DNA of 64,000 bases from a virus. The stretch covers positions 1 through 64,000 of IMG/VR virus record IMGVR_UViG_3300028394_002328, one strand, 5' to 3'. The notes under the pieces are model-generated. The model did not search any database and was not told where the DNA came from. It saw only the letters and a list, made by a program, of their open reading frames with translations. Shown piece after piece: positions 32,708 through 64,000 of the stretch (position 1 is the first letter of the stretch; each line of letters begins with the position of its first letter). The position numbers and the translations under genes are program-made.

Positions 32708-33033
32708 GCGACGATGTAGTTATTATTTGGGAAGCACCCAAAATCATACCTCCTGAATTTCGGTTATATTACGACGAAAAGGGTAATGTTATTTGCTATA
32801 GTTGTCAACAGTTAGAAGGCAATTATATTGTAATTGATGCATTAACTTATGCTATAGCAAGACCTGATGTAAGAATCATTGATGGAAAAATTTCAACAGT
32901 AGCACCTGATGCAGTAGTATATAAATTAATGCCATCAGATGATGGTACTGCTTGTGCTTCAGAAGATATTAGCATTATTTCAGACGGGTCAATAGAAACA
33001 ACTAAGTGGAAATTAAGAATTTATGAGTTATGA
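32704..33033 (+). CDS. Unknown 109-residue protein in the modification operon
   Basis: I do not recognise a function. The product opens with VVIIWEAPKIIPPEFRLYYD, followed by GNVICYSCQQLEGNYIVIDA and a series of short beta segments (RIIDGKISTV, VVYKL, TTKWKLRIYEL). Two cysteines lie close together (C-Y-S-C, about residues 30-33), but there is no second pair to complete a zinc site. It is soluble, without signal or membrane segments. It overlaps the upstream transferase by 4 bp and the downstream one by 11 bp, so translation is coupled. An accessory role to the flanking transferases is likely but unproven. Confidence 0.6.
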   Translation: MSDDVVIIWEAPKIIPPEFRLYYDEKGNVICYSCQQLEGNYIVIDALTYAIARPDVRIIDGKISTVAPDAVVYKLMPSDDGTACASEDISIISDGSIETTKWKLRIYEL

Positions 33034-33973
33034 TATAGTTGATGTAGCTGATTTAGATTGCGTATATCTTAGCTATGATGAGCCACAGAAAGAAGAATTT
33101 TGGCTCAAAATTAAAAATATGATTCCATGGGCTAAAAGAGTTGACGGAGTAAAAGGTAGTGATGCAGCACATAAAGCAGCAGGCGAGGCTAGTGATACTG
33201 AAAGATTCATTCTAATCGACGGGGATAATATGCCTGATGAATCATTTTTTAATCTTCAATTAGACTTTACTGACAAAGATCCTAAATATCATCAAGCACA
33301 GTTTCGTTGGAAAGCAATTAACGCTGTCAATGGATTACGGTATGGCAATGGTGGTATGAGCAGTTGGACAAAAACTTATGTCAGGGACATGCAAACACAT
33401 GAACACCAAAAAAACGGTGATCTATCTCGTGTTGCTGATTTTTGTTTAGATAGTGCTGACAATTTGTATTGGGCTATGTATGATTGCTATAGTACTACAT
33501 ACCCTAACTATACTCCTTTCCAAGCATGGCGTGCTGGTTTCCGCGAAGGTGTTAAGATGTGCTTGAATCGGGGTGCAGTCCCAACTATAGATGAGTTTAA
33601 AGAAACAGTAGCAAGTAGAAATTTAAACAATCTTACTATATGGCACAATGTTGGTGCAGACGTTGATAATGGTATGTGGGCAATATATGGCGCAAGACTT
33701 GGTACATATATGACTATGCTAACTGCTTGGGAACATATTAATGTGCAGTGGTTTGACAACTACCCAGTACTATGGGAAGAACATAAAGATAAAGACCCAG
33801 AGCGTGAATCAACGTTACTAGGAGTTGCTCTACACGATAAACTTGGATTGCCTATGTGTACTCTAGGAAAAGAGCAAAGCAAATTTTTCAAACGTCATTA
33901 TAACGCAGATAAACATAATTTAGGTCCTTTGATTACTGAAATGGATGTGATTCGTAGAATCGAAGGATGGTGA
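33023..33973 (+). CDS. GT-A-like transferase with IDGDN motif
   Basis: The 316-residue product follows a pattern seen in phage GT-A-like proteins: DCVYLSYDEPQKEEFW, then WAKRVDGVKGSDAAHKAA, and SDTERFILIDGDNMPDESFF at about residues 58-77, where D-G-D-N fits the DxD metal site. The C-terminal half is Trp/His-rich (for example WHNVGADVDNGMWAIYG). It probably transfers a sugar from a nucleotide donor in the cytoplasm. The 'DTERF(I)' segment resembles the start of the giant repeat protein at 57810 (STTEHFWIIN), suggesting distant relatedness. It overlaps neighbours on both sides. Donor and acceptor are unknown. Confidence 0.6.
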   Translation: MSYDIVDVADLDCVYLSYDEPQKEEFWLKIKNMIPWAKRVDGVKGSDAAHKAAGEASDTERFILIDGDNMPDESFFNLQLDFTDKDPKYHQAQFRWKAINAVNGLRYGNGGMSSWTKTYVRDMQTHEHQKNGDLSRVADFCLDSADNLYWAMYDCYSTTYPNYTPFQAWRAGFREGVKMCLNRGAVPTIDEFKETVASRNLNNLTIWHNVGADVDNGMWAIYGARLGTYMTMLTAWEHINVQWFDNYPVLWEEHKDKDPERESTLLGVALHDKLGLPMCTLGKEQSKFFKRHYNADKHNLGPLITEMDVIRRIEGW

Positions 33974-39085: not shown

Positions 39086-39087
39086 AA

Positions 39088-40365: not shown

Positions 40366-41327
40366 TCGCTATAGAGGCTCCCCAGCCTTACTTGGCCGTT
40401 ACTTGGCAAGTTAATAACTATTGTAACTTTAGGTGTAGTTATTGTAACCCGGGCAATTGGGGAGGCACTGACATCAATGATGGCAATCTAGACTTATACA
40501 TCAACAATCTAGATATTATCATTAATCGTTATAGAGAGATAGGTTATAAGAATTTTAAATTTTTCTTTAGTGGTGGTGAGCCCACTGCTTGGCGTAACTT
40601 TATTCCAATATGTGAATGGTTGTACAAAGAACTACCCCATGCTACATTAGCAGTCAATACTAATTTAAGTCGCCCGTTAAAATGGTGGGAGAAAAATCAT
40701 TATTTATTTGATGATGTAGTTGCTAGTTTTCATGTAGAGTTTGCTGATAAAAAACGGTATGAAGAAAATAGTATATTCTTATGCGATAAGGTAAACTATT
40801 TGGCTACTAAGATGTTACTACATGAGGAAAGATTTTGGGAAGTAGTAGAGTTTGGTAAGCATTTGAAAACTGTAATGCCAAACTACTTCTTAGAATGGAC
40901 TCCGCTATTTGATGAAATGACAGTCAATGCTGGCCCTTGGGAATACAAAGATCCTGCAAAAACTCAGTTCATTAATGATTGTACATCAGAGCATCAACAA
41001 ATCAAGCCAAAGCCTGATAAAAGATCAAACTACAATGTTAGTTATAATAGATATGATGATAATCATACAGAAGTGTGTAACAGTAATGAGGTAATTGTTG
41101 CAGGTAATAATTACTTCAGTAGTTGGCGCTGCAATGTAGGTGATGCTATCTTTATCAATCCAGTGGGCGAGATTAGTTTAGCAAGTTGTGGTATGGGTGG
41201 CAATGCGGGTCATATATTAAAGGATATTTCTCGTGTTGGACCTAAACAAATCATTTGCAAAAAAGAACATTGCCACTGTGGCACAGATATTATAATCCCT
41301 AAATTTATAAACAATGGCAATCCTTAA
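40350..41327 (+). CDS. Short radical SAM protein without twitch domain (6 of 6)
   Basis: The 325-residue product starts at a GTG inside the previous gene and lacks the N-terminal twitch region. The cluster motif CNFRCSYC lies at residues 25-32, and FFFSGGEPTAWRNF gives the GGE motif. The C-terminal third has scattered Cys and His residues (SWRCNVGDAIFINPVGEISL, then CGMGG, CKKEHCHCG), which may bind an auxiliary cluster or metal, like a C-terminal SPASM-type region. This differs in architecture from the other five and could be their partner or act on a separate step. It overlaps the following glycosyltransferase gene by 14 bp. Substrate unknown. Confidence 0.82.
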   Translation: MGRKLIAIEAPQPYLAVTWQVNNYCNFRCSYCNPGNWGGTDINDGNLDLYINNLDIIINRYREIGYKNFKFFFSGGEPTAWRNFIPICEWLYKELPHATLAVNTNLSRPLKWWEKNHYLFDDVVASFHVEFADKKRYEENSIFLCDKVNYLATKMLLHEERFWEVVEFGKHLKTVMPNYFLEWTPLFDEMTVNAGPWEYKDPAKTQFINDCTSEHQQIKPKPDKRSNYNVSYNRYDDNHTEVCNSNEVIVAGNNYFSSWRCNVGDAIFINPVGEISLASCGMGGNAGHILKDISRVGPKQIICKKEHCHCGTDIIIPKFINNGNP

Positions 41328-47526: not shown

Positions 47527-48336
47527 ATGACAGATTTATCTAACATTGATTTTGGTAAATATAAACGCTTCTTTGCGTTTGGATGCAGTTTTACTTCATA
47601 TCATTGGCCTACTTGGGCTGATGTATTAGCATCTGAAATGCCTAATGCTGAATTTTACAATTTTGGACATTGCGGTGGTGGTAATTCAATGATATCTAAT
47701 CGCATTGCTGAAGCAAATTGTAGATATAAATTTACCGATACTGATTTAGTTGTGCCGATGTGGACTACATTTTGTAGAGAAGATAGGTATAGAACTGGTC
47801 AATGGATGAGTACTGGTAATATGTTTAGCCAAAATGAATTTGATGAAGAATTTGTGAGAAAATATTGCGACCCAATTGGATATTTGTTAAGAGATTTAGC
47901 AATAATTACTGTTACAAGTACCTATCTTAAATCCTTGCCTTCTGATTCATTCATGTTAAATGGAGTACCTTATACTTATCAAATGGATATTGAAACCGCA
48001 CCATATCCAAAATTAAAAGAAATTTTGGAATTATATAAAGACACTATTAGCTTAACTCCACCTGCATTAGTTGATTTAGAATTAGGAGGTGAATTTAAAC
48101 ACGGTCATGAATACTCAAGGACGCATAATGGTGATTGGTACTTAGACTATCATCCAAACACATTGCATTATAATGGATACCTTAAAAAAATAGGTCTACC
48201 GTTAACATCTAAATCTTCAATGTATACAGAACATTCAATGACATTGTTAAAATCAACTAAAACAGAAGCACAATTGATCATCGCCTTTAATAAAATGGTT
48301 GACGATAGAAATACAAAATTAAAAAATCTTTTTTGA
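47527..48336 (+). CDS. SGNH hydrolase-like protein (3 of 3)
   Basis: The 269-residue product has FAFGCSFTSYHWPTWADVLA, a variant GxS first block seen in phage and bacterial SGNH relatives, then FGHCGGGNSMISNRI (second and third blocks with Gly and Asn) and, near residue 213, DYHPNTLHYNGYL, giving the Asp-x-His catalytic pair. The set of key residues is therefore complete. No secretion signal is visible. It follows a GT-B-like gene just as the first SGNH gene does, which makes transferase-plus-esterase a repeated unit here. Acylation or deacylation of a transferred sugar is an inference. Confidence 0.65.
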   Translation: MTDLSNIDFGKYKRFFAFGCSFTSYHWPTWADVLASEMPNAEFYNFGHCGGGNSMISNRIAEANCRYKFTDTDLVVPMWTTFCREDRYRTGQWMSTGNMFSQNEFDEEFVRKYCDPIGYLLRDLAIITVTSTYLKSLPSDSFMLNGVPYTYQMDIETAPYPKLKEILELYKDTISLTPPALVDLELGGEFKHGHEYSRTHNGDWYLDYHPNTLHYNGYLKKIGLPLTSKSSMYTEHSMTLLKSTKTEAQLIIAFNKMVDDRNTKLKNLF

Positions 48337-48350
48337 ACTTAGGAATATTA

Positions 48351-50705
48351 ATGAAAAAAGTAACAATGATTGGAGTAGGCAAATTAGGACAAGACTGTGC
48401 TGAGGTAATGGCAGACGCGGGCTATGATGTAATCGGTTATGATATAGAACCTAGGTCACCTAAGTTTCCTATGATGAATACTATTAAAGAAGCAGTCATT
48501 GACCGTGATATTATTTTTATTGCTGCACCAACACCACATGATCCTATATACGGCGGTGAAACTCCTACTAGTCATTTACCTAATAAAGACTTTAATTATA
48601 ATATAGTAATCAATATACTCAATGAGGTAAACATATTCGTTAATAAAAAGCAACTAGTTGTACTTATAAGCACCGTGTTACCCGGGACAGTTCGTAATCA
48701 TTTAGAACCTTGTATTACTAACGCTAGATTCATTTACAACCCATACTTGATTGCAATGGGCACGGTCAAATGGGACATGGTAAACCCTGAAATGATTATC
48801 ATTGGAACAGAAGATGGTAGTATTACAGGTGATGCACAAGAGTTGATTGATTTTTATAATGTGTTTATGAATAATAATCCTAGGTACGAAGTAGGTACTT
48901 GGGATGAAGCAGAATCAATAAAGATTTTTTATAATACTTTTATTAGTACTAAGTTAGCACTAGTGAATATGGTTCAAGACGTAGCCGAAACAAACGGCAA
49001 CATTAATGTAGACATTGTTACCAAAGCATTAGCAAATAGTACACAGCGTATTATGGGCCCTGCATATATGCAAGCTGGCTTAGGAGATGCAGGAGCGTGT
49101 CATCCTAGAGATAATATTGCATTAAGGTATTTAGCCGATAGATTAGACTTGGGCTATGATCTGTTTGATTGCATAATGACCGCTAGAGAAGTACAAGCAG
49201 AGCGTATGGCACTCAGATGTTTAAAGAATGGTAAGAACGTCACTATTATCGGTAAAGCATATAAACCTAAAGTACCTTACACAAATGGTAGCGCTAGCAT
49301 GTTGGTCGGTTATTATATTGAAAAACATGGAGGCTATATTAATTATTACGATGAAAATACAGGTGATTTAGATTTAAAAACAGAATGGACTGAAGTATAT
49401 TTAATTGGATATTGGGAAGATTGGGTGCATCATGCATTAAATAATATTCCATGTGATTATAGGTCAGTAGTTATAATTGATCCATGGAGGAAGATTTCTG
49501 ACCATAATGCATCTTATAAGTTTGAAACTATCGAATACGGTAATACTAGACCAAAAAATATATATGGTGTAGAAAACTCTCAATATCTAATTTATCAAAC
49601 CGGTCATTTAAAGAATTTGTTTGGGTTATGGCCTGAAATGGAAAAACATAAAGATATTATTCATCTCATTGATGCTGAATCAGGTCCAACAAAATTTCAT
49701 TTGAGACCCACGGAATTGATTGTAGAAGAAATATTAGAGGCTTCTAAGAATGGAAAAATTAAATTTTTATTTAATAATTTAGCTGAAGGATATCAAATTC
49801 CAGCAGTAGACAAAATTCACCGCATTGCAAATATATTAGAAAATCAAATTGATTCCAAGAATCTTATATATTTGACATCTTCGCCCGGAGTAGAACAAAT
49901 ATATGAAGATTTGTTTTCCAGTAAAAAGAATAAAAATTGGAAAAATAAAATTTCAATATTGTCTGCCCATGCTTTTCATTTATATACTCAGTGGAGTATG
50001 TTAGAGCTTAAAGAGTTAACTAATTATATAATTAAAGAAAAATCTAAAGATTTTTTATGTTTCAACAAAGTTCCTCGTGAGCATCGAATCAGACTACTTA
50101 ATAGAGTGCTAGAGCATAATATGCTAGATAAAGGTTATTATTCGTTTGAAGGGTTACCAAATTGGTTAGAATTCTTACCATACGAATTTACTAGTATTAA
50201 ATTAAATAAACATAAATTTCCAATAAAATTAAATATAACCCCTGAAAGACCAAATCCGTTAATGGTAGAAGTTCAGGATCTTAAATATTTTGATGATAGT
50301 TATTTTAGTATAGTTACCGAAACAACTTTTTATAATAATGACCATCCGCGTATTGTTAGATATGGGACCTTAGATAATATTTTTATTACTGAAAAGACTT
50401 TTAAATGTTTTCCTGCAATGCACCCGTTCATTGTATTTGCTTATCCTAATTTATTATCTGAATTAAGAAAACTTGGGTATAAAACGTTTGCACCCTTTAT
50501 AGATGAATCATATGATACTATTATCAATGATGATGATAGATTTGAAGCAATATGGAAAGAAATAACTAGATTATTACATAAAACACCTGAAGAATGGATT
50601 CAATGGCAATCTGGCATCAAAGAAATCGTTGAATTTAATAAAAATCATTTTTATTCAAATACAAATTATTCTTCTACCCCTATTGACGATATTTTTGGAG
50701 ACTAA
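48351..50705 (+). CDS. UDP-sugar dehydrogenase fused to a GT-B-like domain (copy 3 of 4)
   Basis: I chose the ATG at 48351 (784 residues) over the TTG at 48333: AGGAA at 48341-48345 is well spaced and the protein then begins directly with the NAD site (MKKVTMIGVGKLGQ). Residues 1-400 match UDP-glucose/GDP-mannose dehydrogenases: IAAPTPHDP, STVLPGTVR, and GDAGACHPRDNIAL with Cys250 at the catalytic thioester position. Such enzymes oxidise C-6 of an NDP-sugar to a uronic acid. From about residue 440 follows the GT-B-like domain shared with 41314 and 46382 (DSYFSIVTETTFY near 650, then ITEKTFKCF and FAPFIDESYDT). A fusion of donor oxidation and transfer is unusual and suggests channelled use of an NDP-uronate. 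Confidence 0.8.
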   Translation: MKKVTMIGVGKLGQDCAEVMADAGYDVIGYDIEPRSPKFPMMNTIKEAVIDRDIIFIAAPTPHDPIYGGETPTSHLPNKDFNYNIVINILNEVNIFVNKKQLVVLISTVLPGTVRNHLEPCITNARFIYNPYLIAMGTVKWDMVNPEMIIIGTEDGSITGDAQELIDFYNVFMNNNPRYEVGTWDEAESIKIFYNTFISTKLALVNMVQDVAETNGNINVDIVTKALANSTQRIMGPAYMQAGLGDAGACHPRDNIALRYLADRLDLGYDLFDCIMTAREVQAERMALRCLKNGKNVTIIGKAYKPKVPYTNGSASMLVGYYIEKHGGYINYYDENTGDLDLKTEWTEVYLIGYWEDWVHHALNNIPCDYRSVVIIDPWRKISDHNASYKFETIEYGNTRPKNIYGVENSQYLIYQTGHLKNLFGLWPEMEKHKDIIHLIDAESGPTKFHLRPTELIVEEILEASKNGKIKFLFNNLAEGYQIPAVDKIHRIANILENQIDSKNLIYLTSSPGVEQIYEDLFSSKKNKNWKNKISILSAHAFHLYTQWSMLELKELTNYIIKEKSKDFLCFNKVPREHRIRLLNRVLEHNMLDKGYYSFEGLPNWLEFLPYEFTSIKLNKHKFPIKLNITPERPNPLMVEVQDLKYFDDSYFSIVTETTFYNNDHPRIVRYGTLDNIFITEKTFKCFPAMHPFIVFAYPNLLSELRKLGYKTFAPFIDESYDTIINDDDRFEAIWKEITRLLHKTPEEWIQWQSGIKEIVEFNKNHFYSNTNYSSTPIDDIFGD

Positions 50706-50708
50706 TAA

Positions 50709-52958
50709 TTGGATTTTAACCTAACGTCATTAGCAGTAGATAAGTTAGTTCCTAAAGAACGGCCTACAGAAGATATTGCCGATGCCCGACATCGTAATAT
50801 GATGGAGGCTATAGCGCCCTATGCAAAGAAAACAGAACAAAAAAATCTAACACCTGTATATGTTAATTATAAAACCCGCAATACTAAATTAGTATTGGTA
50901 TTATGTCCTGAATGGAGTCCGTATATGCCGCCCTTTAGTCTAGCTAGACTAAGTGGTATAGCAAAAAGTGCAGGATATGAAACTACTATTATGGATTTGA
51001 ATGTTAGAGCCTATAACGAATATCGTAACGATTGGCAACCTAATAAAAAACTCCCATTCAGACTATGGGATCCTAGTAGCAGTTGGCACTGGCTAGGCGA
51101 GACTTATATGAATGATATTCATCCCGTATTAGAGCCTGTACTTAGTAAAGCAATAGATGATATAGTTGAACTAAATCCTGAAGTAGTTGGCTTTAGTATA
51201 TATTATATTAGTGAAGAGCCAACTAAGTGGATGTGTAAAGAACTCAAACGTAGACTGCCCAATGTAAAAATTGCAGTAGGTGGACCCAACGTACACAAGA
51301 GTTGGTTTAAAGTAGAACCATATTATGATTATGCAGTTGTGGGTGAAGGTGAGGCAAACTTATTAGTATTACTTGAAGAAGTAGAAAACGGTATCAACCA
51401 CAGTGAACCTAAGATTCTAGATCAACCCGAAGAGCAGCGTATCAACATAAATGGCTTGCCTATGCCAGACTATGAGTCTATAGATTTTAGTCAATATGAA
51501 TTGCCTAACGGAGTAAACACAGAAATTAGTAGGGGCTGTACAGCAAAATGTACTTTTTGCGAAGAGACACATTTTTGGCGATATCGTCAGCGTCAATCTG
51601 TTGATTTGATTACGGAAATCGAATGGCTATACTATAATAAGGGTACAGATGTTGTTTGGTTCATTGATAGTTTAGTCAATGGCAACTTAAAAGAGTTGAG
51701 GGCTTTTGTCAAAGGAGTCGCCGCTAAAGGTCTTAAGATTAAGTGGACAGGATATGCCCGCTGTGACGGCCGAATGGATCTAGAATACATGAAAGATTTA
51801 GCTGCCGGTGGTTGTATCATGTTTAACTATGGGATAGAATCCGGTAGTCAAAAAGTATTGGACGATATGGCTAAAGGCGTCACGATTGCAGAGATGGAAC
51901 AAAACTTCATCGATGGTAAAAAGGTGGGTATATGGGCTGCTACAAACTGGATTGTAGGATTCCCCACTGAAAATTTTCAAGACTATGCCGATAGCATGAC
52001 ACTACTATGGCGTATGCGTAATAATAATATTAATAACGCCGGCTTGGGAGTAGGTTATGGCTTGGGCCCTGAAACTATAGTAGGTCAAAATCCGCATAAA
52101 TTTAATATTAGTTGGCACAAGTATCAAGGACATTGGATTACAAAAGACTTGACAATGGGCGGTACTCATGTCATGACTAGAGTAAAAACGTTTCATATGT
52201 TTGCCGATTTTATACAGGGGTGTAGTGAAGTTCCAATTGGTTATCCAGTGAGACACAGTTTAGCAAGAGAACATTATAAAATAGAATTGAATGATCCTAA
52301 GTGTATCAAAGAAATTGAATATGAAAAATTTGATTATAATATTATTAAAGTAGATATTAATCCATTTGCTAATACATTAGTAAATGAAATGTGGCCATTC
52401 TTTCGAATGCTTTGGAAAACTAGAGGTGGATATAAAGCTGTAGTGAAATTTCATCCTGACATTGATTTAAAAGAGTTTGGCAGTCAGTTTGGACCCGGCA
52501 TGTATTATGCTACTTATAAGTTTGATATCACGGATGACGGCAAGTGGGATGCCGATTTTGATATTATTTTTAATCAAGTAGATAATATATTTGACGATAG
52601 AGAACGTCCGCCTCTAGGTAGAAAAGGTCCTTTTTACGCACAAGACTATAGTAGAATTCAAGCTAATACAGCCAAACGTGCCCGTAAATTAGCAAAGCCA
52701 ACATGGAGCGATGAAGAAGGTAGAGATGGACAAGATTTTACAGACTTGTTAAATGAAGAACAAATGTTAAATGAAACTATTGATTTCTCATTTAAGCTAC
52801 ATTGGGTTGAGTCAGGTGATTGGGGCAACTATGCCGACTATGAAGTTAAAGTTTCTGATACTACTACCGTTGTGATTCCTGAAAAGAAAGCAATGTCGGC
52901 TACAGAATTTGCTACAATTGACGTAACATCTATTAAAAAACGTGAACCCAATACTTGA
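50709..52958 (+). CDS. B12-binding-type radical SAM protein
   Basis: The 749-residue product has an N-terminal B12-binding-like fold at about residues 55-210 (LVLVLCPEWSPYMPPFSLAR, VAVGGPNVHKSW-type segment, VVGEGEANLLVLLEE), then the radical SAM motif CTAKCTFC at residues 277-284 and the barrel (WFIDSLVNGN, MFNYGIESGSQKVLDDMAKG, WIVGFPTENFQDY). The usual DxHxxG cobalamin-ligand motif is not visible, so cobalamin may be bound base-off without it or not at all. Related enzymes methylate unreactive carbons or rearrange scaffolds. The C-terminal 200 residues are an unrecognised acidic extension. The TTG start is supported by GGAG at 50697-50700, 8 nt upstream. Substrate unknown. Confidence 0.8.
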   Translation: MDFNLTSLAVDKLVPKERPTEDIADARHRNMMEAIAPYAKKTEQKNLTPVYVNYKTRNTKLVLVLCPEWSPYMPPFSLARLSGIAKSAGYETTIMDLNVRAYNEYRNDWQPNKKLPFRLWDPSSSWHWLGETYMNDIHPVLEPVLSKAIDDIVELNPEVVGFSIYYISEEPTKWMCKELKRRLPNVKIAVGGPNVHKSWFKVEPYYDYAVVGEGEANLLVLLEEVENGINHSEPKILDQPEEQRININGLPMPDYESIDFSQYELPNGVNTEISRGCTAKCTFCEETHFWRYRQRQSVDLITEIEWLYYNKGTDVVWFIDSLVNGNLKELRAFVKGVAAKGLKIKWTGYARCDGRMDLEYMKDLAAGGCIMFNYGIESGSQKVLDDMAKGVTIAEMEQNFIDGKKVGIWAATNWIVGFPTENFQDYADSMTLLWRMRNNNINNAGLGVGYGLGPETIVGQNPHKFNISWHKYQGHWITKDLTMGGTHVMTRVKTFHMFADFIQGCSEVPIGYPVRHSLAREHYKIELNDPKCIKEIEYEKFDYNIIKVDINPFANTLVNEMWPFFRMLWKTRGGYKAVVKFHPDIDLKEFGSQFGPGMYYATYKFDITDDGKWDADFDIIFNQVDNIFDDRERPPLGRKGPFYAQDYSRIQANTAKRARKLAKPTWSDEEGRDGQDFTDLLNEEQMLNETIDFSFKLHWVESGDWGNYADYEVKVSDTTTVVIPEKKAMSATEFATIDVTSIKKREPNT

Positions 52959-53526
52959 GTTTGAAACGGTTATAAAAGAATATTATAACAGCCCATATGC
53001 GGTTACAACTGATTGTTGTACCCACGCTATTGAACTATGTATTAGGTTATTAAAGCCAACTGAGGTATCATGTCCAAAACACACCTACCTAAGTGTTCCA
53101 ATGACATTTGAAAAATTAAATCTAGATTGGAGATTTAAAAATTTTAAATGGAATGATTATTATTATATAACTAATAATATTATTGATGCGGCAGTATATT
53201 GGAAGCCCGATGGATATATCCCTAATACATATATGTGCTTGTCATTTCAATTTAAAAAGCATTTAAATGTGGGTAGAGGTGGCATGATATTAACCGACGA
53301 TTATGAATCTTATAAAAAATTAAAAAAGATGAGTTATGATGGTAGGCTTCCCGATATTGCATGGGCTGAACAAGACGTAGACACATTGGGTTATCATTAT
53401 TATATGACACCTGAAACTGCTGAGTTGGGTTTAGATAGATTTCACGAAGTAAAGGACATTGAACCTAGACAATGGTCTTGGAAAGACTATCCCGACTTAA
53501 CAACAATGAGTGTATTCAAATGCTAA
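52942..53526 (+). CDS. Half-length DegT/DnrJ-type aminotransferase
   Basis: The 194-residue product starts at a GTG within the previous gene. It keeps parts of the DegT/StrS sugar aminotransferase fold: an AVTTDCCTHAIELCIRLL segment, IIDAAVYW (like the Asp that holds the PLP ring nitrogen) and CLSFQFKKHLNVGRGGMILT, where Lys106 aligns with the PLP lysine. Normal members are about 370 residues, so about half is missing, including the C-terminal small domain and part of the central sheet. It may be a minimal active form, a subunit needing a partner, or a decaying enzyme. It overlaps the amidinotransferase gene, so an amino-sugar then guanidino-sugar order fits the two genes. Confidence 0.65.
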   Translation: MNPILEFETVIKEYYNSPYAVTTDCCTHAIELCIRLLKPTEVSCPKHTYLSVPMTFEKLNLDWRFKNFKWNDYYYITNNIIDAAVYWKPDGYIPNTYMCLSFQFKKHLNVGRGGMILTDDYESYKKLKKMSYDGRLPDIAWAEQDVDTLGYHYYMTPETAELGLDRFHEVKDIEPRQWSWKDYPDLTTMSVFKC

Positions 53527-54482
53527 GTAAAAACGAGTGGGATCCACTTAAAACCGTGATTGTTGGTATAGCAGATAATGCTACTAGACCAATTATATCT
53601 ACAAGCGTTAGGACTGTTAACTATGCTGATGTAAAAGATGTGAGTACGATTGAATGTGGTCCATATCCTGTACAAGTCATAGAAGAAGCGAATCAGGATT
53701 TAGAAACACTATGTGATTTTCTTAAGAAAGAAAACATTAAGGTATTACGCCCTGAAGCAAATCATCCTAGGTATTATAACTATTGCCCAAGAGATACGGT
53801 ATTAATACATGATGAATTAGTATTGGCTACACCAACTGCACTAAGTGAACGACGCCATGAATGGACTAGTTCTGCGAAGCATTTAAATATAGTTACAGTA
53901 GCACCTATACCAAATGATGATATAATTTATAATACTGAATGTATAGGTAATCCTGATATTTTAGCATTAAATGAAATAGATCCTTGTTTTGATGCTGCTA
54001 ATATTATTAGAGCAAATGAAGACCTTTATTATCTAGTTAGTAATACTGGTAATAAAAAAGGTGCAGAATACTTAAGGTCATTGGGCAAAACTGTACATAC
54101 TATTGAAAACGTATATAGTTATATTCATATTGATAGTACTATTGCATTTTTGCGTGAGGGTTTAATGTTGTTAAACCCAAAAAGAATTACGAATGTCAAA
54201 GAACAATTACCCAAATCATTGCATAATTGGGATATAATATGGGCTACTGAGCCAATAGATATTGGACATTACCCCGGTATATGCAATGCTAGTGTTTGGA
54301 TAAATGTAAATTTGTTATCTATCAATCCTAACTTAGTAGTTCTAGAAGAACACCAACACAATTTACGAATAGAATTAGAAAAATACGGTATTGAATCAGC
54401 AATGTTACCAATGCGTCATGCTAGAACATTAGGTGGTTGTTTTCACTGTGTGACATTAGATTTAGTTAGAGATGATAAATGA
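53520..54482 (+). CDS. Amidinotransferase (AGAT/StrB1-like)
   Basis: I chose the ATG at 53520 (320 residues; 7-bp overlap with the previous stop) over the ATG at 53472, since the protein then begins MLSKNEWDPLKTVIVG like other members. The family fold is clear: CPRDTVLIHDELVLATP, RHEW, PCFDAANIIRANEDLYYLVS, YIHIDSTIAFLREGLMLLNP and RTLGGCFHCVTLD. The triad is present as Asp158, His203 and Cys310. These enzymes move the amidino group of arginine to an amine, giving a guanidino product; in streptomycin-type pathways the acceptor is an aminocyclitol. Next to an aminotransferase, the likely acceptor is an amino-sugar or amino-cyclitol (inference). It overlaps the next gene by 4 bp. Confidence 0.85.
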   Translation: MLSKNEWDPLKTVIVGIADNATRPIISTSVRTVNYADVKDVSTIECGPYPVQVIEEANQDLETLCDFLKKENIKVLRPEANHPRYYNYCPRDTVLIHDELVLATPTALSERRHEWTSSAKHLNIVTVAPIPNDDIIYNTECIGNPDILALNEIDPCFDAANIIRANEDLYYLVSNTGNKKGAEYLRSLGKTVHTIENVYSYIHIDSTIAFLREGLMLLNPKRITNVKEQLPKSLHNWDIIWATEPIDIGHYPGICNASVWINVNLLSINPNLVVLEEHQHNLRIELEKYGIESAMLPMRHARTLGGCFHCVTLDLVRDDK

Positions 54483-56221: not shown

Positions 56222-56320
56222 ATGTTTATATTTAAATGGATTAAGAATATTATCCGAGAATACAAATACCGTAAAAGAATTAAAGAATTACGCAAACGGG
56301 ATCCTTTCATATACAAATGA
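56222..56320 (+). CDS. Small basic protein, 32 residues
   Basis: An ATG behind a strong AAGGAG-type site opens 32 codons and its TGA overlaps the next ATG (ATGA). The product is very basic and aromatic: MFIFKWIKNIIREYKYRKRI followed by KELRKRDPFIYK. It would form an amphipathic helix that could lie on a membrane or bind RNA or nucleotides. The ending KRDPFIYK looks like a signature I associate with tiny genes in aquatic T4-like phages, but I know no function. The excellent ribosome site, promoter-like octamer and translational coupling to the carbamoyltransferase support it as a real gene. Confidence 0.6.
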   Translation: MFIFKWIKNIIREYKYRKRIKELRKRDPFIYK

Positions 56321-57798
56321 ACTATATAGGAATATCAGCAGGATTCCATGACGCTGCTATTAGTGTGGTAGACAATTCAGGCGACATACTATTTGCTGGG
56401 CATAGTGAACGGTATAGTAAGAAAAAACATGATAAAGACTTATGCCAAAAGTTACTTACGGACGCATTAAGTTACTGTAATTCAGAATCAATAGAGTATC
56501 ATTACTACGAAAGACCATGGTTAAAAGCACTTAGACAGTTACGTAGTGGTGAGGGTTTTGTTTGGCCAAGTTGGAAAAACTTATTAGGTCCCATCTATAA
56601 TCAAATGGGTAAACCAAAGATACATGTACATGGTCATCATCTATGCCATGCAGCAGCAGGATTTCAAACCAGTCCTTATAGTGACGCCACAGTTGTAATA
56701 ATTGACGCTATAGGTGAGTTTGACACTATGACGATTTGGGATGCTAGATATGACCTTATAACTGGCAAGGCTGCCTATGAGAAACTATGGAGTATGCAAT
56801 ATCCAAACAGTGTTGGCTTGTTCTATTCGGCCATGACTGAGCGAGTCGGATTGCGTCCACTAGATGAAGAATATATTCTTATGGGCATGGCTGCATATGG
56901 TCATCCTCATCATGTTGATAATATGTTTGATGCGTTAATAGATGACGATGACATATTGACCTTTAAACAGAACCTACATGTTGGGGTGAGCAAAGAATTT
57001 TTGAAAGATGCTAAAGAAACAGACATTGCTAGTAGTAGTCAACAGATAGCAGAGTATATGATAACTCTAGTTGTAAGCAAGGCTAAACGTTTAGGTAGAA
57101 GTAGAAATCTAGTATACGGTGGCGGTGTAGCATTGAACTGTTTAGCCAACAGATTATTAGGAAATATATATGAAAATATTTGGATTATGCCGAACCCTGG
57201 TGATGCAGGTAATAGCCTTGGTGCAGCATGTCTTGGCTATGGCACTAAACTTAATTGGAGTAATGCTTTTCTTGGCTATGATATCACTGGGGATTATCCT
57301 GTTCACAGGTTACTTGATAGTTTACTTACTGATAGGATGGTTGGTGTTGCGTCCGGTAGGGCAGAATTTGGACCGAGGGCCTTAGGTAATCGTAGTTTGT
57401 TGGCAGATCCTCGAGGTGATGATATCAAAGATAGAGTAAATGAAATTAAGCGTAGACAAAAGTTTAGACCATTCGCCCCTATCATTCTTGAGGAATATGT
57501 ACATGATTACTTTGACATGCCAAAGTCTTGGGGGAATAGTAGGTATATGCAAGTGATTGCTAACTGTAAATACCCTGATCAATTTCCTGCTATCGCACAT
57601 GCCGACAATACTAGTAGGGTACAAACAGTGCCCAAAGATGGATCGGGTATTAGAGAGTTATTAGAGAAATGGTACGTTATAACTGAATGTCCAATGTTGT
57701 TGAATACTAGTCTGAACATTCGTGGTGAGCCAATGGTCAATGACAGGACCGATGCTGACAGATTTGAAAAACTGTATGGGGTCAAAGTTCTGTCATAA
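56317..57798 (+). CDS. O-carbamoyltransferase (NodU/CmcH/TobZ family)
   Basis: The 493-residue product has the two-domain family layout. The N-terminal HSP70-like domain starts YIGISAGFHDAAISVVDN and carries HVHGHHLCHAAAGF (H105-A113) and VIIDAIGEFD; the YrdC-like C-terminal half has GGGVALNCLANRLL, GDAGNSLGAACLGYG, SGRAEFGPRALGNRSLLADP and PMLLNTSLNIRGEPMV. These are the ATP and carbamoyl-phosphate binding motifs. The enzyme transfers a carbamoyl group to a hydroxyl of a sugar or antibiotic. It is somewhat shorter than TobZ (about 570). Only 11 bp separate it from the giant repeat gene, and it shares translation with the 32-residue gene. The acceptor may be the sugar built by the preceding genes. 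Confidence 0.9.
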   Translation: MNYIGISAGFHDAAISVVDNSGDILFAGHSERYSKKKHDKDLCQKLLTDALSYCNSESIEYHYYERPWLKALRQLRSGEGFVWPSWKNLLGPIYNQMGKPKIHVHGHHLCHAAAGFQTSPYSDATVVIIDAIGEFDTMTIWDARYDLITGKAAYEKLWSMQYPNSVGLFYSAMTERVGLRPLDEEYILMGMAAYGHPHHVDNMFDALIDDDDILTFKQNLHVGVSKEFLKDAKETDIASSSQQIAEYMITLVVSKAKRLGRSRNLVYGGGVALNCLANRLLGNIYENIWIMPNPGDAGNSLGAACLGYGTKLNWSNAFLGYDITGDYPVHRLLDSLLTDRMVGVASGRAEFGPRALGNRSLLADPRGDDIKDRVNEIKRRQKFRPFAPIILEEYVHDYFDMPKSWGNSRYMQVIANCKYPDQFPAIAHADNTSRVQTVPKDGSGIRELLEKWYVITECPMLLNTSLNIRGEPMVNDRTDADRFEKLYGVKVLS

Positions 57799-57809
57799 GT
57801 AATTACATC

Positions 57810-60800
57810 ATGAGAGATGTATTTTATTACGGCGAAAAACCCAACGTTCATCCAAAAGAAAAATTTGCAACTTCAATAGAAGATGCTAGGCGTCAATCAA
57901 CGACAGAACATTTTTGGATAATCAATGAATTCTGTGACTATCGCAATTTTGATTGGGATTTTGATTTTGAATTCCTGCCCGATGAAGATGTATGGGCAGA
58001 AGACCATAACAATGTATGGCCTAGTCAACATCAAAAAGACAGTGGCACTTGGCTATGTTCAAAGAAAAACAGTGATATAATTATCTATCGTGCTGATGTT
58101 GACCCTGTTATTCGTAAGAATATAAAGAACGATCACTGGGTATTATTAGATTTAATTGATGAAAATAAATTTGATTTTAGTTGGCACCCTGATCCAACTG
58201 ATCCTCCTTATAATTATAAATGGGGATGTAAGTTTTTTCCAGTAGAATTACAGGCATGTTTAGAATATCGTATTGATGGTGCGTTCAAAACAAAATACAT
58301 GAAAGAAATTGTAGAATTGTTACCACAGTATGATAGATGGGTAGAAGTACAAGAGATAGATAAATTAGCATTTGATATGTCATGGAGACCCAATCCATTG
58401 GATCCCCCTATGAATTATATATGGGGTAACAAATATATTGATGGTAATCTACGTTCAACTCTAGAATACCGTATACCAGGTGCAATTGATACAAAATACA
58501 TGCCTGATTTAATTTCGGTAGTACCTGAATGGGATAAGTGGGTAGAAGTACAAAAAGTAAATAAGTCTACATTTGATTTTACATGGAGACCTGATCCACG
58601 TGAACCTGCGTATATCTATACTTGGGGTAACAAATATATCGATTCTGAGCTAAGGCCAACACTTGAATACCATTGTGAAGGGGCTACTGAACGCAAGTAT
58701 ATGTCTAATGATGTAGAGGTATTACCTGAATGGGATAAGTGGGAAATACTTCATCCTATAGATAAATCTACATTTAATTTTACATGGAGACCTGACCCTA
58801 GAGAACCAAATTTAAATTATGTATTTGGTAATAATCAGTATGACAGTACAAAAATGCCTACCATTATTTACAAAATGGAAGGTGCTACCGATGAAAAGCA
58901 TATGCCGAGTAATGCTAAATTGTTACCACAGCCTAACAGGTTTCAACATTTAGAAGATAGTTATGGCATAGATTATTCTTGGGTTCCTGATCCTACTAGT
59001 CCTCCTTATATATATGTTTGGGGTAATCAATGGAATAACCCTCAAGATAAAATATCTATTCAATATGTAGTTGAAGGAGCAACAGAATACAATTATATGG
59101 CAGAACGTGCTATTCGTAAGCCATGTAAAGATAATTGGGAAATACCTAACAATGTGGATATTACTGGGTTTGATTTTAGTTGGGAACCTAGTCCAGCAGA
59201 TCAACCTTATATCTATCAATTTGGCACTCAATGGCAAAAGACAGGTGGACCAAGATATCTAACACCTGGCGTACATAAAAATAGTGATGTTAAGTATGTT
59301 GATTTACAAAAAGTAAAAATGTTACCTAGTAAAGATAACTTCATTATCTTAGACAATGTTGTTGTAGATGATTTTGATTATAGTTGGCATTCCGATGAAA
59401 CAGAAGAGCCATACATATATGTATTTGGTAATAATTTATACTCTGCTGAAATTATGCCAACTATTCAGTATGTACCTAAAAATGCAGTCAGAGCAGCATC
59501 AGGCAAATCAATTGGACAAATAAAATATGTCAATGATATTATCGCTACGTTAGGAGAGAATAGAAATAATTGGGTAATTAATCAACCAATAGATGAAACT
59601 AAATTTGATTTTAGTTGGGTACCCAACCCCAAAGACCCAGCTTACATATACCGTTGGGGTAACAAATATATTTCTAATGTATATAAACCAACTATTGAAT
59701 ATATAGTTGAAGGTGCAACTGAAATAAAATACATGGACGACAGTGTTGCTGTATTACCCGAGTTTGATCGTTGGTATATCCCATCTAATATTGATGATAC
59801 TGGTTTTGATTATACATGGAGACCTGATCCACTAGAACCTGTATTAATTTGGCAATTTGGTACACAATGGCAAAAGACGGGCGGACCTAGATATACCATG
59901 CCTGGTGCCATTGAAGTCAAATATGTTAGTATACACAAGGTAAAAGCATTGCCTAATAAAGACAATTGGACTATACCTAAAAATATAGATATATCTAATT
60001 TTGATTTCAGTTGGCATCCTGATGATACTTCACCTCCTTACATATATAGGTTTCCCACTCAGTGGGCAATGAGTGGTGGTCCTATTTACACTGTAGTTGG
60101 AGCAACAGAAGTAAAGTATATAGATACCTTTAGGGCTAAAGCACTACCTAGTATAGATAATTGGGAATTCGATTCTAATAATATTGATTTGTCTAACTTT
60201 GACTTTAGTTGGCATCCATACGCAGAAGACGAGCCGTTCATATACCAATTTGGTACTCAATGGCAAAAGACAGGTGGTCCTAGATATTTAACTCCAGGAG
60301 TTCATAAAAATAGTCCTGTAAAATATATTGATACACGCATTATAAAAGCAAAAAGATTACCTAATAAAAATAATTTTATAATCATTGATAATAATGTAAT
60401 TGACAATTTTGACTACTCATGGCATCCTGATGAAACAGAGGAGCCATTTGTTTATATATTTGGTAACACTCAATATCCAGCCGAGATAATGCCTACAATA
60501 AAATATGTTGTAGAAGGTGCTACTCAAATAAAATATATTAATGATGTAGTTGCTGTACTAGGTGAAAATAAGAAAGTTTGGCATATCCCTGATAATATTG
60601 ATGATAGTTCATTTGATTATACTTGGGTGCCTAATCCCAAGGACCCGCCGTATATATACGAATTTGGTACGCACTGGCAAAAAACTGGTGGTCCAATCTA
60701 TGCTGTTAAAGATGCCACTGAAGTCAAATATATTGATTATCAAAAAGTAACCGCATTGCCTAATAAAGATAATTGGACTATACCTGGTAACGTGGATATA

Positions 60801-63800
60801 TCTGAATTTGATTTTAGTTGGCATCCAGATTCTACAAGTCCACCATATATCTATAGATTTCCCACTCAGTGGGCAATCAGTGGTGGTCCAACATATACTA
60901 TAATTGGTGCAACAGAGATAAAATATTTGGATACGATTAAGGTCAAAGCGCTACCTTGCAAAGATAATTGGGAATTTGATTCCAATATTATTGACAATGA
61001 AAACTTTGACTTTAGTTGGCATCCATATGCGGAAGACGAACCTTTTATATACCAATTTGGAACCCAGTGGCAAAAAACAGGTGGACCAAGGTATTTAACA
61101 CCTGGTATACATAAAAATAGCCCTGTAAAATATATTGACACTAGAATTATAAAAGCAAATAGATTACCTAATAAAGATAATTTTATCATCATTGATAATA
61201 ATGTAATTGATAGCTTTGATTACTCATGGCACCCTGATGAAACCGAAGAGCCATTTGTGTATATATTTGGTAACAATCAGTATCCAGCTGAGATAATGCC
61301 TACACTAAAATATGTTGTAGAAGGTGCTACAAAAATAAAGTATGTTAATGATATAGTTGCTATACTAGGTGAAAACAAAACTTATTGGGAAATACCTGAA
61401 GGTGTAGATGTAATTGAGTTTGATTTTAGTTGGGTACCTAATCCTAAAGATCCTGCATACATTTATGAATTTGGTACACAATGGAATGATAGGGGAGGTC
61501 CAAAATATGTTCCACCTAATAAAGGGCTTAGATTGGGTTCGGGTAAGATCATTGGTCAATATAAGTATGTCAGTGATCAAATTGCTACCTTGGGGGAAAA
61601 TAAAACAAATTGGATTATACCTGATAATATTGATATTACGGATTTTGATTTTAGTTGGGTTCCGCATCCCGATGACCCACCGTATATATATGAGTTTGGT
61701 ACACAGTGGCAAAAAACAGGTGGTCCAAAGTATGTAGTTTCAGGTTATACTGAAGTTAAATATGTTGCTACCCTTAAAGCTAGAATATTACCTAACAAAG
61801 ATAATTGGGAAGTACCTGAAAATATTGACAGTGCGAGTTTTGATTTTAGTTGGCATCCAGATGCAACTGAAGAACCCTATGTATATAAATTTGGAACCCA
61901 GTGGCAAAAAACAGGTGGACCAAGGTATTTAACACCTGGTATACATAAAAATAGCCCTGTAAAATATATTGATCCTAAAGTTCTTAGTAGTAAGAGATTG
62001 CCTAATAAAGAAAATTTTACTATAATAGATAATATTATTGTTGCTCATTTTGACTATAGTTGGCATCCTGACGAAACCGAAGAACTATATGTATATGTAT
62101 TTGGTAATAATTATTATCCAGCAGAGATAATGCCAACTGTTCAATACATACCTAAAGGTGCGATAATATCGGCATCAGGTAACCCCATTGAACAAATAAA
62201 ATATGTTAGTGGTGTGGTCGCTATACTAGGTGAAAATAAAACCAATTGGATAATACCTAAAGATATTGATCAACCCTCTTTTGATTTTAGTTGGGTTCCG
62301 CACCCAAACGATGAACCTTACATATATCAATTTGGTACACAACATCAAAAAACAGGTGGGCCGCAGTATGTACCAACTGCTATACCTAGGTTAGCATCAG
62401 GTTCTGCAATTGGTCAGGTTAAATATGTTGATGGTATAAAGGCTAAAAAGCTACCTAATAAAACTAATTGGACTAATCCTAGCAAAGTGGACGTTAGTAC
62501 ATTTGATTTCAGTTGGCACCCGGATGATACGTCACCTCCTTACATATATCAATTTGGTACATTATTAGATAGAGAAGATGGACCTAGGTATATGACTCCA
62601 AAGACTAATGGAGTGATTGTTTATTTGGAAAAAGTTGAAAAGGAAATTGAGGAAGTAGTAGAAGAAATTGTAAAAGACACTTTTCCCAAATATTATATTA
62701 CTACTACACTTGATGATTTAGTAAAACAACATCCAAATGAAATGTTTTGGGCATTAAACCCTGATTTGGATTATAGTGAATTTGATTTTGATTGGAGACC
62801 CAATATTGACAGATCACAATATGAGTCTGAATACGTTCATGCATTTGGTTCGAGTGAAAGTGAAAAAACACAAACTTATCTAGTTAATAGTACAATGTGG
62901 GAGAAAGGTCTTAGAGAATTAAATTGGGTTGTTGATAAAAAACTTGATGATGAAACCTTGTTTAAAATGTTCAAAAAGCCTGACATATTCTTCGTAGATA
63001 AAAGCAACCTAGAATCTCAAGCAAGGTACGAACAACTTAAAACTAAGTTTCCCAACATACAAAAAACACGTTACCTAAACAGTTGGGTCGATACTATCAA
63101 TCGTTGCATCAACAGGGCAAGTAATAACTTGTGTTGGATATTAAACAGCGAGCTAGACTATACTAATTTTGATTTTGATTATTATCCTAATCCATGGCAA
63201 ATGAAAATGGTCCATGTATTTGGAACACAATGGAGTCATTGGGGAACTACATTCATGATCAACCGTGAGACATTTGCTGAAGATACCAAGTGGATTAAAA
63301 TAATAGAGCATTTGAATAATCTTAATTTCGTAAAAGATAGAACTGCAATTGCTACTGATAATATATATGACATATATGTAGTAGACCATGGTAATAAAGA
63401 AACTGCAAAAGTTGTTCAACAATTAACCAATAAAGCATCAGGTAAATTAGTTAATACTATACCATACTCTGAAAATTATCTACTGACCTTTAAGAAATTA
63501 TTAAAACAACTTCTAGAAAAGAAAGAACACTATATTTGGATATGCAGTAGCATATGTGATTATAGCGATTTTGATTTTAGTTATGTTTGTGATCCTTTTG
63601 CCCGTGAGCAATTACATGTATTTCCTAGCGATAAACAAAAGTTAGGTGATACCTTTTTAGTTAATATTAATAAGTTTCGTGAATTAATTGATAATATGAC
63701 TTTATTAAATGAGTATAATAAAATCAATTATAACCAACATCAAACCGTTAAAAGATTAGATTCACCTACTATAATTACTAATTACGATTCGCATGTATTA

Positions 63801-64000
63801 AGTGTAATGGAAGACTTTGACTTCCCGTATGCTGTATTCTTATCAGAAGATAATAAAGATTTAAAAGTTACCGATGAAGAACCAATTAGTTTATGGAGTA
63901 GTGATACTAAGAACATTGTTATTACTAGTACTGGTGGAACAAGAATAGTAGTTCCTAAAGAAGCTAAAAATTATGTAGACACACAATTGTATGATTATCC
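57810..64000 (+). CDS. Giant Phe-Asp-Phe-x-Trp repeat protein (3' truncated)
   Basis: From the ATG at 57810 one frame stays open to the window end: at least 2063 codons. The first 110 residues (MRDVFYYGEKPNVHPKEKFA, then STTEHFWIINEFCDYRNF) lead into about 24 units with a core (F/I)(D/N)(F/Y/M)xWxPxP; the first clear core is at residue 121. Typical unit: FDFSWHPD, 'PPYIY.FGTQWQKTGGP.Y', 'GATEVKY', 'LPNKDNW.IP..ID', about 67-77 residues. The last cores (62781, 63168, 63570) are 129-134 residues apart and include an extra Rossmann-like half (DIFFVDKSNLESQARYEQLK). Core spacing and the 'TEHFW' segment recall GT-A-like phage proteins with the DxD lost. No signal or membrane segment is seen. I do not recognise a function; scaffold, acceptor protein or inactive transferase array are options. 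Confidence 0.75.
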   Translation, partial: MRDVFYYGEKPNVHPKEKFATSIEDARRQSTTEHFWIINEFCDYRNFDWDFDFEFLPDEDVWAEDHNNVWPSQHQKDSGTWLCSKKNSDIIIYRADVDPVIRKNIKNDHWVLLDLIDENKFDFSWHPDPTDPPYNYKWGCKFFPVELQACLEYRIDGAFKTKYMKEIVELLPQYDRWVEVQEIDKLAFDMSWRPNPLDPPMNYIWGNKYIDGNLRSTLEYRIPGAIDTKYMPDLISVVPEWDKWVEVQKVNKSTFDFTWRPDPREPAYIYTWGNKYIDSELRPTLEYHCEGATERKYMSNDVEVLPEWDKWEILHPIDKSTFNFTWRPDPREPNLNYVFGNNQYDSTKMPTIIYKMEGATDEKHMPSNAKLLPQPNRFQHLEDSYGIDYSWVPDPTSPPYIYVWGNQWNNPQDKISIQYVVEGATEYNYMAERAIRKPCKDNWEIPNNVDITGFDFSWEPSPADQPYIYQFGTQWQKTGGPRYLTPGVHKNSDVKYVDLQKVKMLPSKDNFIILDNVVVDDFDYSWHSDETEEPYIYVFGNNLYSAEIMPTIQYVPKNAVRAASGKSIGQIKYVNDIIATLGENRNNWVINQPIDETKFDFSWVPNPKDPAYIYRWGNKYISNVYKPTIEYIVEGATEIKYMDDSVAVLPEFDRWYIPSNIDDTGFDYTWRPDPLEPVLIWQFGTQWQKTGGPRYTMPGAIEVKYVSIHKVKALPNKDNWTIPKNIDISNFDFSWHPDDTSPPYIYRFPTQWAMSGGPIYTVVGATEVKYIDTFRAKALPSIDNWEFDSNNIDLSNFDFSWHPYAEDEPFIYQFGTQWQKTGGPRYLTPGVHKNSPVKYIDTRIIKAKRLPNKNNFIIIDNNVIDNFDYSWHPDETEEPFVYIFGNTQYPAEIMPTIKYVVEGATQIKYINDVVAVLGENKKVWHIPDNIDDSSFDYTWVPNPKDPPYIYEFGTHWQKTGGPIYAVKDATEVKYIDYQKVTALPNKDNWTIPGNVDISEFDFSWHPDSTSPPYIYRFPTQWAISGGPTYTIIGATEIKYLDTIKVKALPCKDNWEFDSNIIDNENFDFSWHPYAEDEPFIYQFGTQWQKTGGPRYLTPGIHKNSPVKYIDTRIIKANRLPNKDNFIIIDNNVIDSFDYSWHPDETEEPFVYIFGNNQYPAEIMPTLKYVVEGATKIKYVNDIVAILGENKTYWEIPEGVDVIEFDFSWVPNPKDPAYIYEFGTQWNDRGGPKYVPPNKGLRLGSGKIIGQYKYVSDQIATLGENKTNWIIPDNIDITDFDFSWVPHPDDPPYIYEFGTQWQKTGGPKYVVSGYTEVKYVATLKARILPNKDNWEVPENIDSASFDFSWHPDATEEPYVYKFGTQWQKTGGPRYLTPGIHKNSPVKYIDPKVLSSKRLPNKENFTIIDNIIVAHFDYSWHPDETEELYVYVFGNNYYPAEIMPTVQYIPKGAIISASGNPIEQIKYVSGVVAILGENKTNWIIPKDIDQPSFDFSWVPHPNDEPYIYQFGTQHQKTGGPQYVPTAIPRLASGSAIGQVKYVDGIKAKKLPNKTNWTNPSKVDVSTFDFSWHPDDTSPPYIYQFGTLLDREDGPRYMTPKTNGVIVYLEKVEKEIEEVVEEIVKDTFPKYYITTTLDDLVKQHPNEMFWALNPDLDYSEFDFDWRPNIDRSQYESEYVHAFGSSESEKTQTYLVNSTMWEKGLRELNWVVDKKLDDETLFKMFKKPDIFFVDKSNLESQARYEQLKTKFPNIQKTRYLNSWVDTINRCINRASNNLCWILNSELDYTNFDFDYYPNPWQMKMVHVFGTQWSHWGTTFMINRETFAEDTKWIKIIEHLNNLNFVKDRTAIATDNIYDIYVVDHGNKETAKVVQQLTNKASGKLVNTIPYSENYLLTFKKLLKQLLEKKEHYIWICSSICDYSDFDFSYVCDPFAREQLHVFPSDKQKLGDTFLVNINKFRELIDNMTLLNEYNKINYNQHQTVKRLDSPTIITNYDSHVLSVMEDFDFPYAVFLSEDNKDLKVTDEEPISLWSSDTKNIVITSTGGTRIVVPKEAKNYVDTQLYDY
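58170..62720 (+). repeat. Array of about 22 FDFSW-type coding units
   Basis: Core codons start at 58170, 58371, 58572, 58773, 58968, 59169, 59373, 59604, 59805, 60000, 60198, 60408, 60612, 60807, 61005, 61215, 61419, 61644, 61839, 62049, 62280 and 62502. Spacing is 195-231 bp, always a multiple of three. The unit is conserved at protein level far more than at base level except in the duplicated part. Confidence 0.85.
60000..61613 (+). repeat. 807-bp tandem duplication of a four-unit block
   Basis: Four consecutive cores at 60000, 60198, 60408 and 60612 recur at 60807, 61005, 61215 and 61419, each offset by exactly 807 bp (269 codons). The sub-types match in order: SPPYIYRFPTQWA, YAEDEPFIYQFGTQWQ, DETEEPFVYIFGN and NPKDP. 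Base similarity is high by eye in the first three units and falls towards the end of the second copy. Confidence 0.8.

What the first reader, a model, noticed from the sequence alone, without database searches (positions are those of the whole stretch)
57810..64000. Second giant ORF: a >2000-residue array of FDFSW-core units of unknown function
Seen: one open frame with 22 regularly spaced cores (195-231 bp) plus three wider-spaced ones near the right edge. Units fall into recurring sub-types in fixed order (QKTGGPRYLTPG..HKNS type at 59169, 60198, 61005, 61839; then DETEE(P/L) type; then VP(N/H)P type), so there is a super-repeat of four to five units. I know no described family with this architecture. 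It lies directly behind a carbamoyltransferase and sugar-modification genes, so it could be a repetitive acceptor protein or a scaffold for modification. That link is inference.
Basis: partly seen in the sequence, partly recalled or inferred. Interest (0 to 1): 0.85.

Follow-up and report, generated by a model that had tools for sequence, protein, structure and literature searches.

The report
Giant phage glycosyltransferase with repeat arm
A jumbo phage encodes a 2,298-residue protein that appears to be a glycosyltransferase (sugar-attaching enzyme) carrying a long arm of 22 repeated mini-domains that look like copies of half of its own enzyme fold; related phages carry from 1 to 33 copies, which suggests an unstudied way of building or measuring a sugar coat.

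Summary
In detail: 22 FDFSW-type cores spaced 195-231 bp in one open frame (0.04 expected by chance), then three wider-spaced ones, and a super-repeat of about four units. The gene continues past the window to 64706 (2298 aa). Neither the whole protein nor its array matches any Pfam, PHROG or PDB family at a trustworthy score. It is not an isolated oddity: hundreds of IMG/VR stretches encode relatives, with a constant N-terminal cap (~107 aa), 1 to 33 units and a constant ~700-aa C-terminal part. AlphaFold plus Foldseek identify that C-terminal part as tandem GT-A glycosyltransferase-like modules. Profile comparison shows that each ~67-aa unit corresponds to the second half of a GT-A module, without the Rossmann half. 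One module keeps a near-invariant ExD (DxD-like) motif and a downstream EH. The last module has replaced DxD with A-K, whereas a separate paralogue in the window (33023-33973) keeps DGD. A TobZ-type carbamoyltransferase lies directly upstream in 41 of 50 loci. Copy number changes fast while units stay under purifying selection. Best reading: a glycan-building enzyme whose repeat array is a non-catalytic arm (scaffold, glycan-binding or ruler). The acceptor is unknown.

The parts
57810..64000 (+). Giant ORF (continues to 64706 in the virus record; 2298 aa)
57810..58124 (+). N-terminal cap, ~105 aa, present in all complete relatives; a degenerate GT-A-like half module
   Evidence: hhalign to modules M0/M2 probability 89-90%; alignment A2
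58125..62666 (+). Array of 22 tandem ~67-aa units (57-77 aa by profile boundaries) with FDFSW core; beta-only predicted fold, super-repeat of four units from unit 6 on
62679..62945 (+). Module M0: truncated GT-A-like module, transition between array and C-terminal part (core 62781)
   Evidence: hhalign to unit 98.2%, to M1 98.4%
62973..63353 (+). Module M1: complete GT-A-like module, best candidate active site (core 63168)
   Evidence: AF2 and Foldseek; invariant residues
63150..63158 (+). ExD motif (ELD) of M1: E in 51/51, D in 49/51 relatives
63363..63710 (+). Module M2: GT-A-like module without DxD (SSxCDY at that place; core 63570)
   Evidence: hhalign to M1 98.2%
63738..64000 (+). Linker domain L23 (continues to 64034) before module M3 (genome 64035-64703, outside the window)
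56317..57798 (+). TobZ/NodU-type O-carbamoyltransferase, 11 bp upstream; conserved partner gene
   Evidence: Pfam Carbam_trans_N/C, PDB TobZ/GdmN/novobiocin carbamoyltransferase, adjacency 41/50 loci
33023..33973 (+). Stand-alone paralogue of the last module (M3), with a DGD motif where the giant protein has A-K
53472..54482 (+). Amidinotransferase (StrB1/GATM type) in the same gene cluster
   Evidence: PDB 1bwd E 9.7e-54
48333..50705 (+). Protein with UDP-glucose/GDP-mannose dehydrogenase domains
50709..52958 (+). B12-binding radical SAM protein
52942..53526 (+). DegT/DnrJ/EryC1-type aminotransferase fragment or short form

Best explanation
The gene encodes a soluble, multi-module GT-A-fold glycosyltransferase of a jumbo phage's glycan-making pathway. 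Shown here by computation: the last ~700 residues form several GT-A-like modules, and the 22 tandem units are related to the second half of such a module. Inferred: module M1 transfers a sugar from a nucleotide donor through its ExD motif. M0, M2 and probably M3 help bind donor or acceptor. The array is a non-catalytic, variable-length arm that holds, spaces or measures the acceptor glycan. The neighbouring carbamoyltransferase decorates the same glycan. The acceptor (virion protein, host surface or a small molecule) is not known.
For: AF2 model of the C-terminal part: pLDDT 83.9, repeated beta-alpha-beta halves followed by mixed strands. Foldseek against PDB: the top 50 are nearly all GT-A glycosyltransferases plus a few nucleotide-sugar transferases, e.g. 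chondroitin polymerase K4CP E 1.3e-4, SunS probability 1.0, WrtF. Viral library: two uncharacterised phage homologues (TM 0.76-0.78), then viral glycosyltransferases. Weak but independent Pfam GT2 models in single members (E 0.0075-0.04). A unit profile built without C-terminal seeds finds M0 and M1 in all 61 relatives (medians 22 and 23 bits) and M3 in 58 (8.7 bits); reversed decoys reach at most 1.3 bits. hhalign unit-M0 98%, unit-M1 96%. The M1 columns E199 (51/51), D201 (49/51), E251 and H252 (51/51) hardly vary. Carbamoyltransferase adjacency 41/50. Sugar-type genes UDPGDH, DegT, amidinotransferase, epimerase and radical SAM nearby. Array acidic (148 K/R against 212 D/E), which speaks against binding DNA. 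Strong copy-number change between proteins whose C-terminal parts are 89-92% identical: 22/33, 21/33, 9/4, 11/8 units.
Against: No curated GT family reaches its cut-off. Foldseek TM scores against whole PDB targets are modest (0.16-0.36), partly because the query holds several modules. The only DxD-like motif is ExD; M2 and M3 lack one, so all modules could be non-catalytic. No direct evidence on what the array binds; the unit fold has no PDB match.
Confidence: 0.6

Rival explanations
1. Molecular ruler: the array sets the length of the glycan that the C-terminal modules make, as the coiled coil does in WbdD and WbbB, with the N-terminal cap as terminator or sensor.
For: Same order of parts as WbbB (N-terminal module, spacer, C-terminal GT modules; PMC11231755). 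Spacer length is the fast-changing part while both ends are constant.
Against: No coiled coil. The cap is a degenerate half module with no recognised terminator activity. Variable arrays also arise by neutral tandem duplication. The glycan product is unknown.
Confidence: 0.15
2. Virion adhesin or shield: the units are lectin-like dead GT halves displayed on the particle and the GT modules are vestigial.
For: Units have lost the Rossmann half and the E of ExD; aromatic-rich (15% W/F/Y); the gene cluster follows tail and baseplate genes; fast copy-number change is common in surface proteins.
Against: Near-invariant catalytic-type residues in M1 and strong purifying selection on the C-terminal part (dN/dS 0.05-0.07). 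Directly coupled to a cytoplasmic sugar enzyme, not to a structural gene.
Confidence: 0.15
3. Self-acceptor: the array is glycosylated and carbamoylated by the cluster.
For: Neighbouring modification genes; a repetitive substrate would suit processive modification.
Against: The units' conserved residues (W, FDFSW, PYIY.FG) look like a fold core, and their homology to GT-A explains them without an acceptor role. No test was possible.
Confidence: 0.08
4. DNA hypermodification enzyme (glycosylates modified phage DNA).
For: Phage GTs and carbamoyltransferases can act in DNA modification (general knowledge).
Against: The thymidylate synthase in the record is close to ordinary ThyA. No Tet/JBP match (without a working control, so weak). 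Array acidic.
Confidence: 0.05

Closest known systems
GT-A-fold glycosyltransferases of the GT2 type with several modules (e.g. chondroitin polymerase K4CP, PDB 2z86/2z87; SunS; WrtF)
   Same: Predicted fold of the C-terminal modules, more than one GT-A module in one chain, DxD-like motif in M1
   Different: Sequence below every Pfam cut-off; extra truncated modules; the 1-33-unit array made from the second half of the fold has no counterpart there
WbbB / WbdD polymerase-terminator proteins of O-antigen synthesis
   Same: Order of parts: N-terminal module, long spacer, C-terminal GT modules (WbbB); spacer length could matter
   Different: Their spacer is a coiled coil; here it is beta mini-domains related to the GT fold itself; no terminator enzyme recognised
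A0A6J5LK21 and A0A6J5L5L5, 'Uncharacterized protein' of uncultured Caudovirales phages (BFVD/UniProt)
   Same: Same C-terminal architecture (TM 0.76-0.78, 32-36% identity)
   Different: Unnamed, nothing known; 804 and 1076 aa, so shorter
Stand-alone phage GT of this window (33023-33973)
   Same: Homologous to module M3, including the C-terminal W-R-x-x-F-R-E region
   Different: Single module, keeps DGD, no array
Phage sugar and carbamoyltransferase gene clusters of jumbo cyanophages (PMC7824862)
   Same: GTs, carbamoyltransferases and hydroxylating enzymes grouped; proposed polysaccharide or secondary metabolite role
   Different: No giant repeat GT mentioned in the passages read; not found in 8 cultured or single-cell phage records searched

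Membership tests
GT-A-fold glycosyltransferase superfamily | Rossmann-like N-terminal half followed by mixed sheet (GT-A fold) | tested here: met
   AF2 model pLDDT 83.9 and Foldseek top matches nearly all GT-A enzymes; by prediction only
GT-A-fold glycosyltransferase superfamily | DxD (or ExD) motif after the fourth strand | tested here: met
   M1: E 51/51, D 49/51; not met in M2 and M3 of the same protein
GT-A-fold glycosyltransferase superfamily | Transfer of sugar from a nucleotide donor | not testable with these tools
   needs an assay
Pfam GT2 families (PF00535, PF13704, PF13641) | Score above the curated cut-off | tested here: not met
   best E 0.0075-0.04, in one or two members only
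WbdD/WbbB ruler proteins | Extended coiled-coil spacer | tested here: not met
   array predicted almost all beta, pLDDT about 95, no long helices
WbdD/WbbB ruler proteins | Terminator enzyme at the far end of the spacer | tested here: inconclusive
   N-terminal cap is a degenerate GT-A half; its model confidence is low (45-84 per block of ten)
WbdD/WbbB ruler proteins | Spacer length determines glycan length | not testable with these tools
   needs genetics
Known repeat families (Pfam, PHROGs, PDB) | Unit matches a described repeat | tested here: not met
TobZ-type carbamoyltransferase (neighbour gene) | N- and C-terminal carbamoyltransferase domains | tested here: met
   PF02543 and PF16861 above cut-off, PDB TobZ

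The most novel reading that the evidence does not exclude
A new repeat domain has arisen by breaking off and multiplying the second half of a glycosyltransferase fold. Jumbo phages use the fast-changing number of units as a ruler or processivity arm to tune the length or pattern of a carbamoylated, possibly guanidinylated glycan.
Probability: 0.2. Interest if true: 0.85.

Novelty: new variant of a known kind. Interest (0 to 1): 0.62.

Why it matters
It gives a common but unnamed family of giant jumbo-phage proteins (hundreds of IMG/VR stretches) a likely enzyme class. It documents a repeat that appears to be a multiplied half of an enzyme fold, with a high-confidence unit model that has no PDB match. 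The natural copy-number series 1-33, between constant ends and next to a conserved carbamoyltransferase, makes the question 'does spacer length tune a glycan?' directly testable.

Tried and rejected
Pfam, PHROG and PDB sequence searches of the whole protein: no trustworthy hit; the PHROG 'endolysin' (E 0.006, 30 residues), Pfam iSirtuin and PHROG 'tail sheath' matches are chance-level. tblastn of the window part and of the C-terminal part in 50,697 phage records: none. Scans of 84,980 bacterial and archaeal species genomes with C-terminal and N-terminal profiles: no relative. Profile search of eight phage records, including three RaK2-like or related jumbo phages and cyanophage and pelagiphage records with carbamoyltransferases: none; the A1 profile rings strongly in the own genome. 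A relation to GREB1/TAGT glycosyltransferases was considered from memory; Pfam gave no match. The 6344-aa first giant ORF has no FDFSW core and looks like a virion protein; not related. A first unit profile contained one C-terminal seed; it was rebuilt without it before the homology claim was made. Literature search for the motif found nothing relevant.

Full report
Observation. The frame 57810-63998 is open to the window edge and ends at 64706 in the 335,035-base virus record in which the window lies; the protein has 2298 residues. It holds 22 FDFSW-type cores spaced 195-231 bp (0.04 expected in shuffles, none elsewhere in six frames), followed by three wider-spaced cores in the window and a fourth outside it. 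From unit 6 on, units four apart are on average 59% identical, against about 40% for most other offsets up to 7. In 18 of 33 long arrays of relatives the best offset is also four.

Setting. The record is a jumbo myovirus: its baseplate wedge protein matches RaK2-like and Agrobacterium/Sinorhizobium jumbo phages over the full length at 31-33% identity. The gene closes a cluster of sugar-type genes: epimerase, methyltransferase, UDP-sugar dehydrogenase, B12 radical SAM, DegT, an amidinotransferase close to the streptomycin-pathway enzyme 1bwd, and a TobZ-type carbamoyltransferase 11 bp upstream.

Relatives. The first scan of viral contigs gave 123 stretches; a profile scan gave at least 579. Contigs reach more than 360 kb. 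All complete proteins have the same plan: an N-terminal cap of ~107 residues, 1 to 33 tandem units, and a C-terminal part of ~700 residues. The smallest are 841-854 aa with one unit, the largest 3084 aa with 33. The carbamoyltransferase is the next gene upstream in 41 of 50 loci with upstream sequence and within three genes in 45. No relative was found in annotated phage genomes or in 84,980 bacterial and archaeal species genomes.

What the C-terminal part is. An AlphaFold2 model on 51 relatives (pLDDT 83.9, pTM 0.67) shows repeated beta-alpha-beta halves. Foldseek against PDB returns almost only GT-A glycosyltransferases, led by the two-module chondroitin polymerase K4CP (E 1.3e-4) and by SunS, WrtF and others with probability near 1. 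The viral library gives two unnamed phage homologues and then viral glycosyltransferases. Module M1 has an ExD motif (E 51/51, D 49/51) and an invariant EH downstream. M2 has no DxD. M3 has A-K-L where the stand-alone paralogue at 33023-33973 has D-G-D. That paralogue was found by the C-terminal profile at E 2e-12. It is 77-94% identical in the 80 best viral stretches returned, and at least 25 of their contigs also carry the giant gene (comparison of the tables).

What the units are. A profile of the 21 tandem units, with no C-terminal seed, matches M0 and M1 in all 61 distinct relatives (medians 22 and 23 bits), M3 in 58 (8.7 bits) and M2 in 45 (3.7 bits); reversed proteins reach 1.3 bits at most. 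Profile-profile alignment gives unit-M0 98%, unit-M1 96%, M0-M1 98%, M1-M2 98%, cap-M0 90% (these are single comparisons, so the values are not corrected for a database). The aligned part of M1 is columns 48-111 of 127, from the strand before the DxD position to the end of the sheet; the Rossmann half is absent. Units are predicted with pLDDT about 95 as almost pure beta structure and have no PDB match. So the array looks like a multiplied half of the enzyme fold.

Evolution. Proteins whose C-terminal parts are 89-92% identical differ by up to twelve units (22 and 33, 21 and 33, 9 and 4, 11 and 8). Most units in the window have dN/dS of 0.06-0.25 against their super-repeat partners, and the C-terminal part 0.05-0.07. 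Copy number is labile while the sequence is constrained.

Mechanism. The best-supported reading is an enzyme: M1 transfers a sugar, the other modules assist, the array is a non-catalytic arm, and the carbamoyltransferase acts on the same glycan. The enzyme class is supported by computation; the role of the array and the acceptor are inferred. A ruler role is attractive by analogy with WbbB and WbdD (PMC11231755), but the defining coiled coil is absent, so this is 'works like', not 'is a member'. Adhesin, self-acceptor and DNA-modification readings are less likely but not excluded.

Verdict. Observation confirmed; interpretation partly supported. The protein belongs by predicted fold to a known superfamily but has an architecture not described in the libraries and papers searched here.

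Noticed in passing
window 33023-33973: Stand-alone GT-A enzyme, homologous to the last module of the giant protein, with DGD motif; 77-94% identical in the best 80 of 422 viral stretches; no Pfam match and only a weak PHROG match (E 0.016).
   Followed up: yes
window 33967-41327: Six consecutive radical SAM genes, three with a SPASM domain, directly behind the stand-alone GT; purpose unknown (peptide or sugar modification).
   Followed up: partly
window 53472-54482: Amidinotransferase close to inosamine-phosphate amidinotransferase (1bwd, E 1e-53) and related to SxtG, an antibiotic-type gene in a phage glycan cluster; suggests a guanidino-bearing sugar or cyclitol.
   Followed up: partly
window 8717-27751: 6344-aa ORF beside the baseplate wedge gene; RaK2, Atu_ph07 and Phosso also have a giant ORF next to their baseplate wedge gene.
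   Followed up: partly
window 41314-42543, 46382-47524, 48333-50705, 54479-56200; 65510-66661 in the record: Five proteins sharing a C-terminal region (EKxFKP..HPF....LxxLGYxTFSPxIDESYD); possibly GT-B-type glycosyltransferases, not recognised by Pfam.
   Followed up: partly
L002:10637-13108 (record 67637-70108): MoxR-type ATPase followed by a DUF2201 metallopeptidase/VWA protein; the matching PHROG calls the latter 'HNH endonuclease', which disagrees with Pfam.
   Followed up: no
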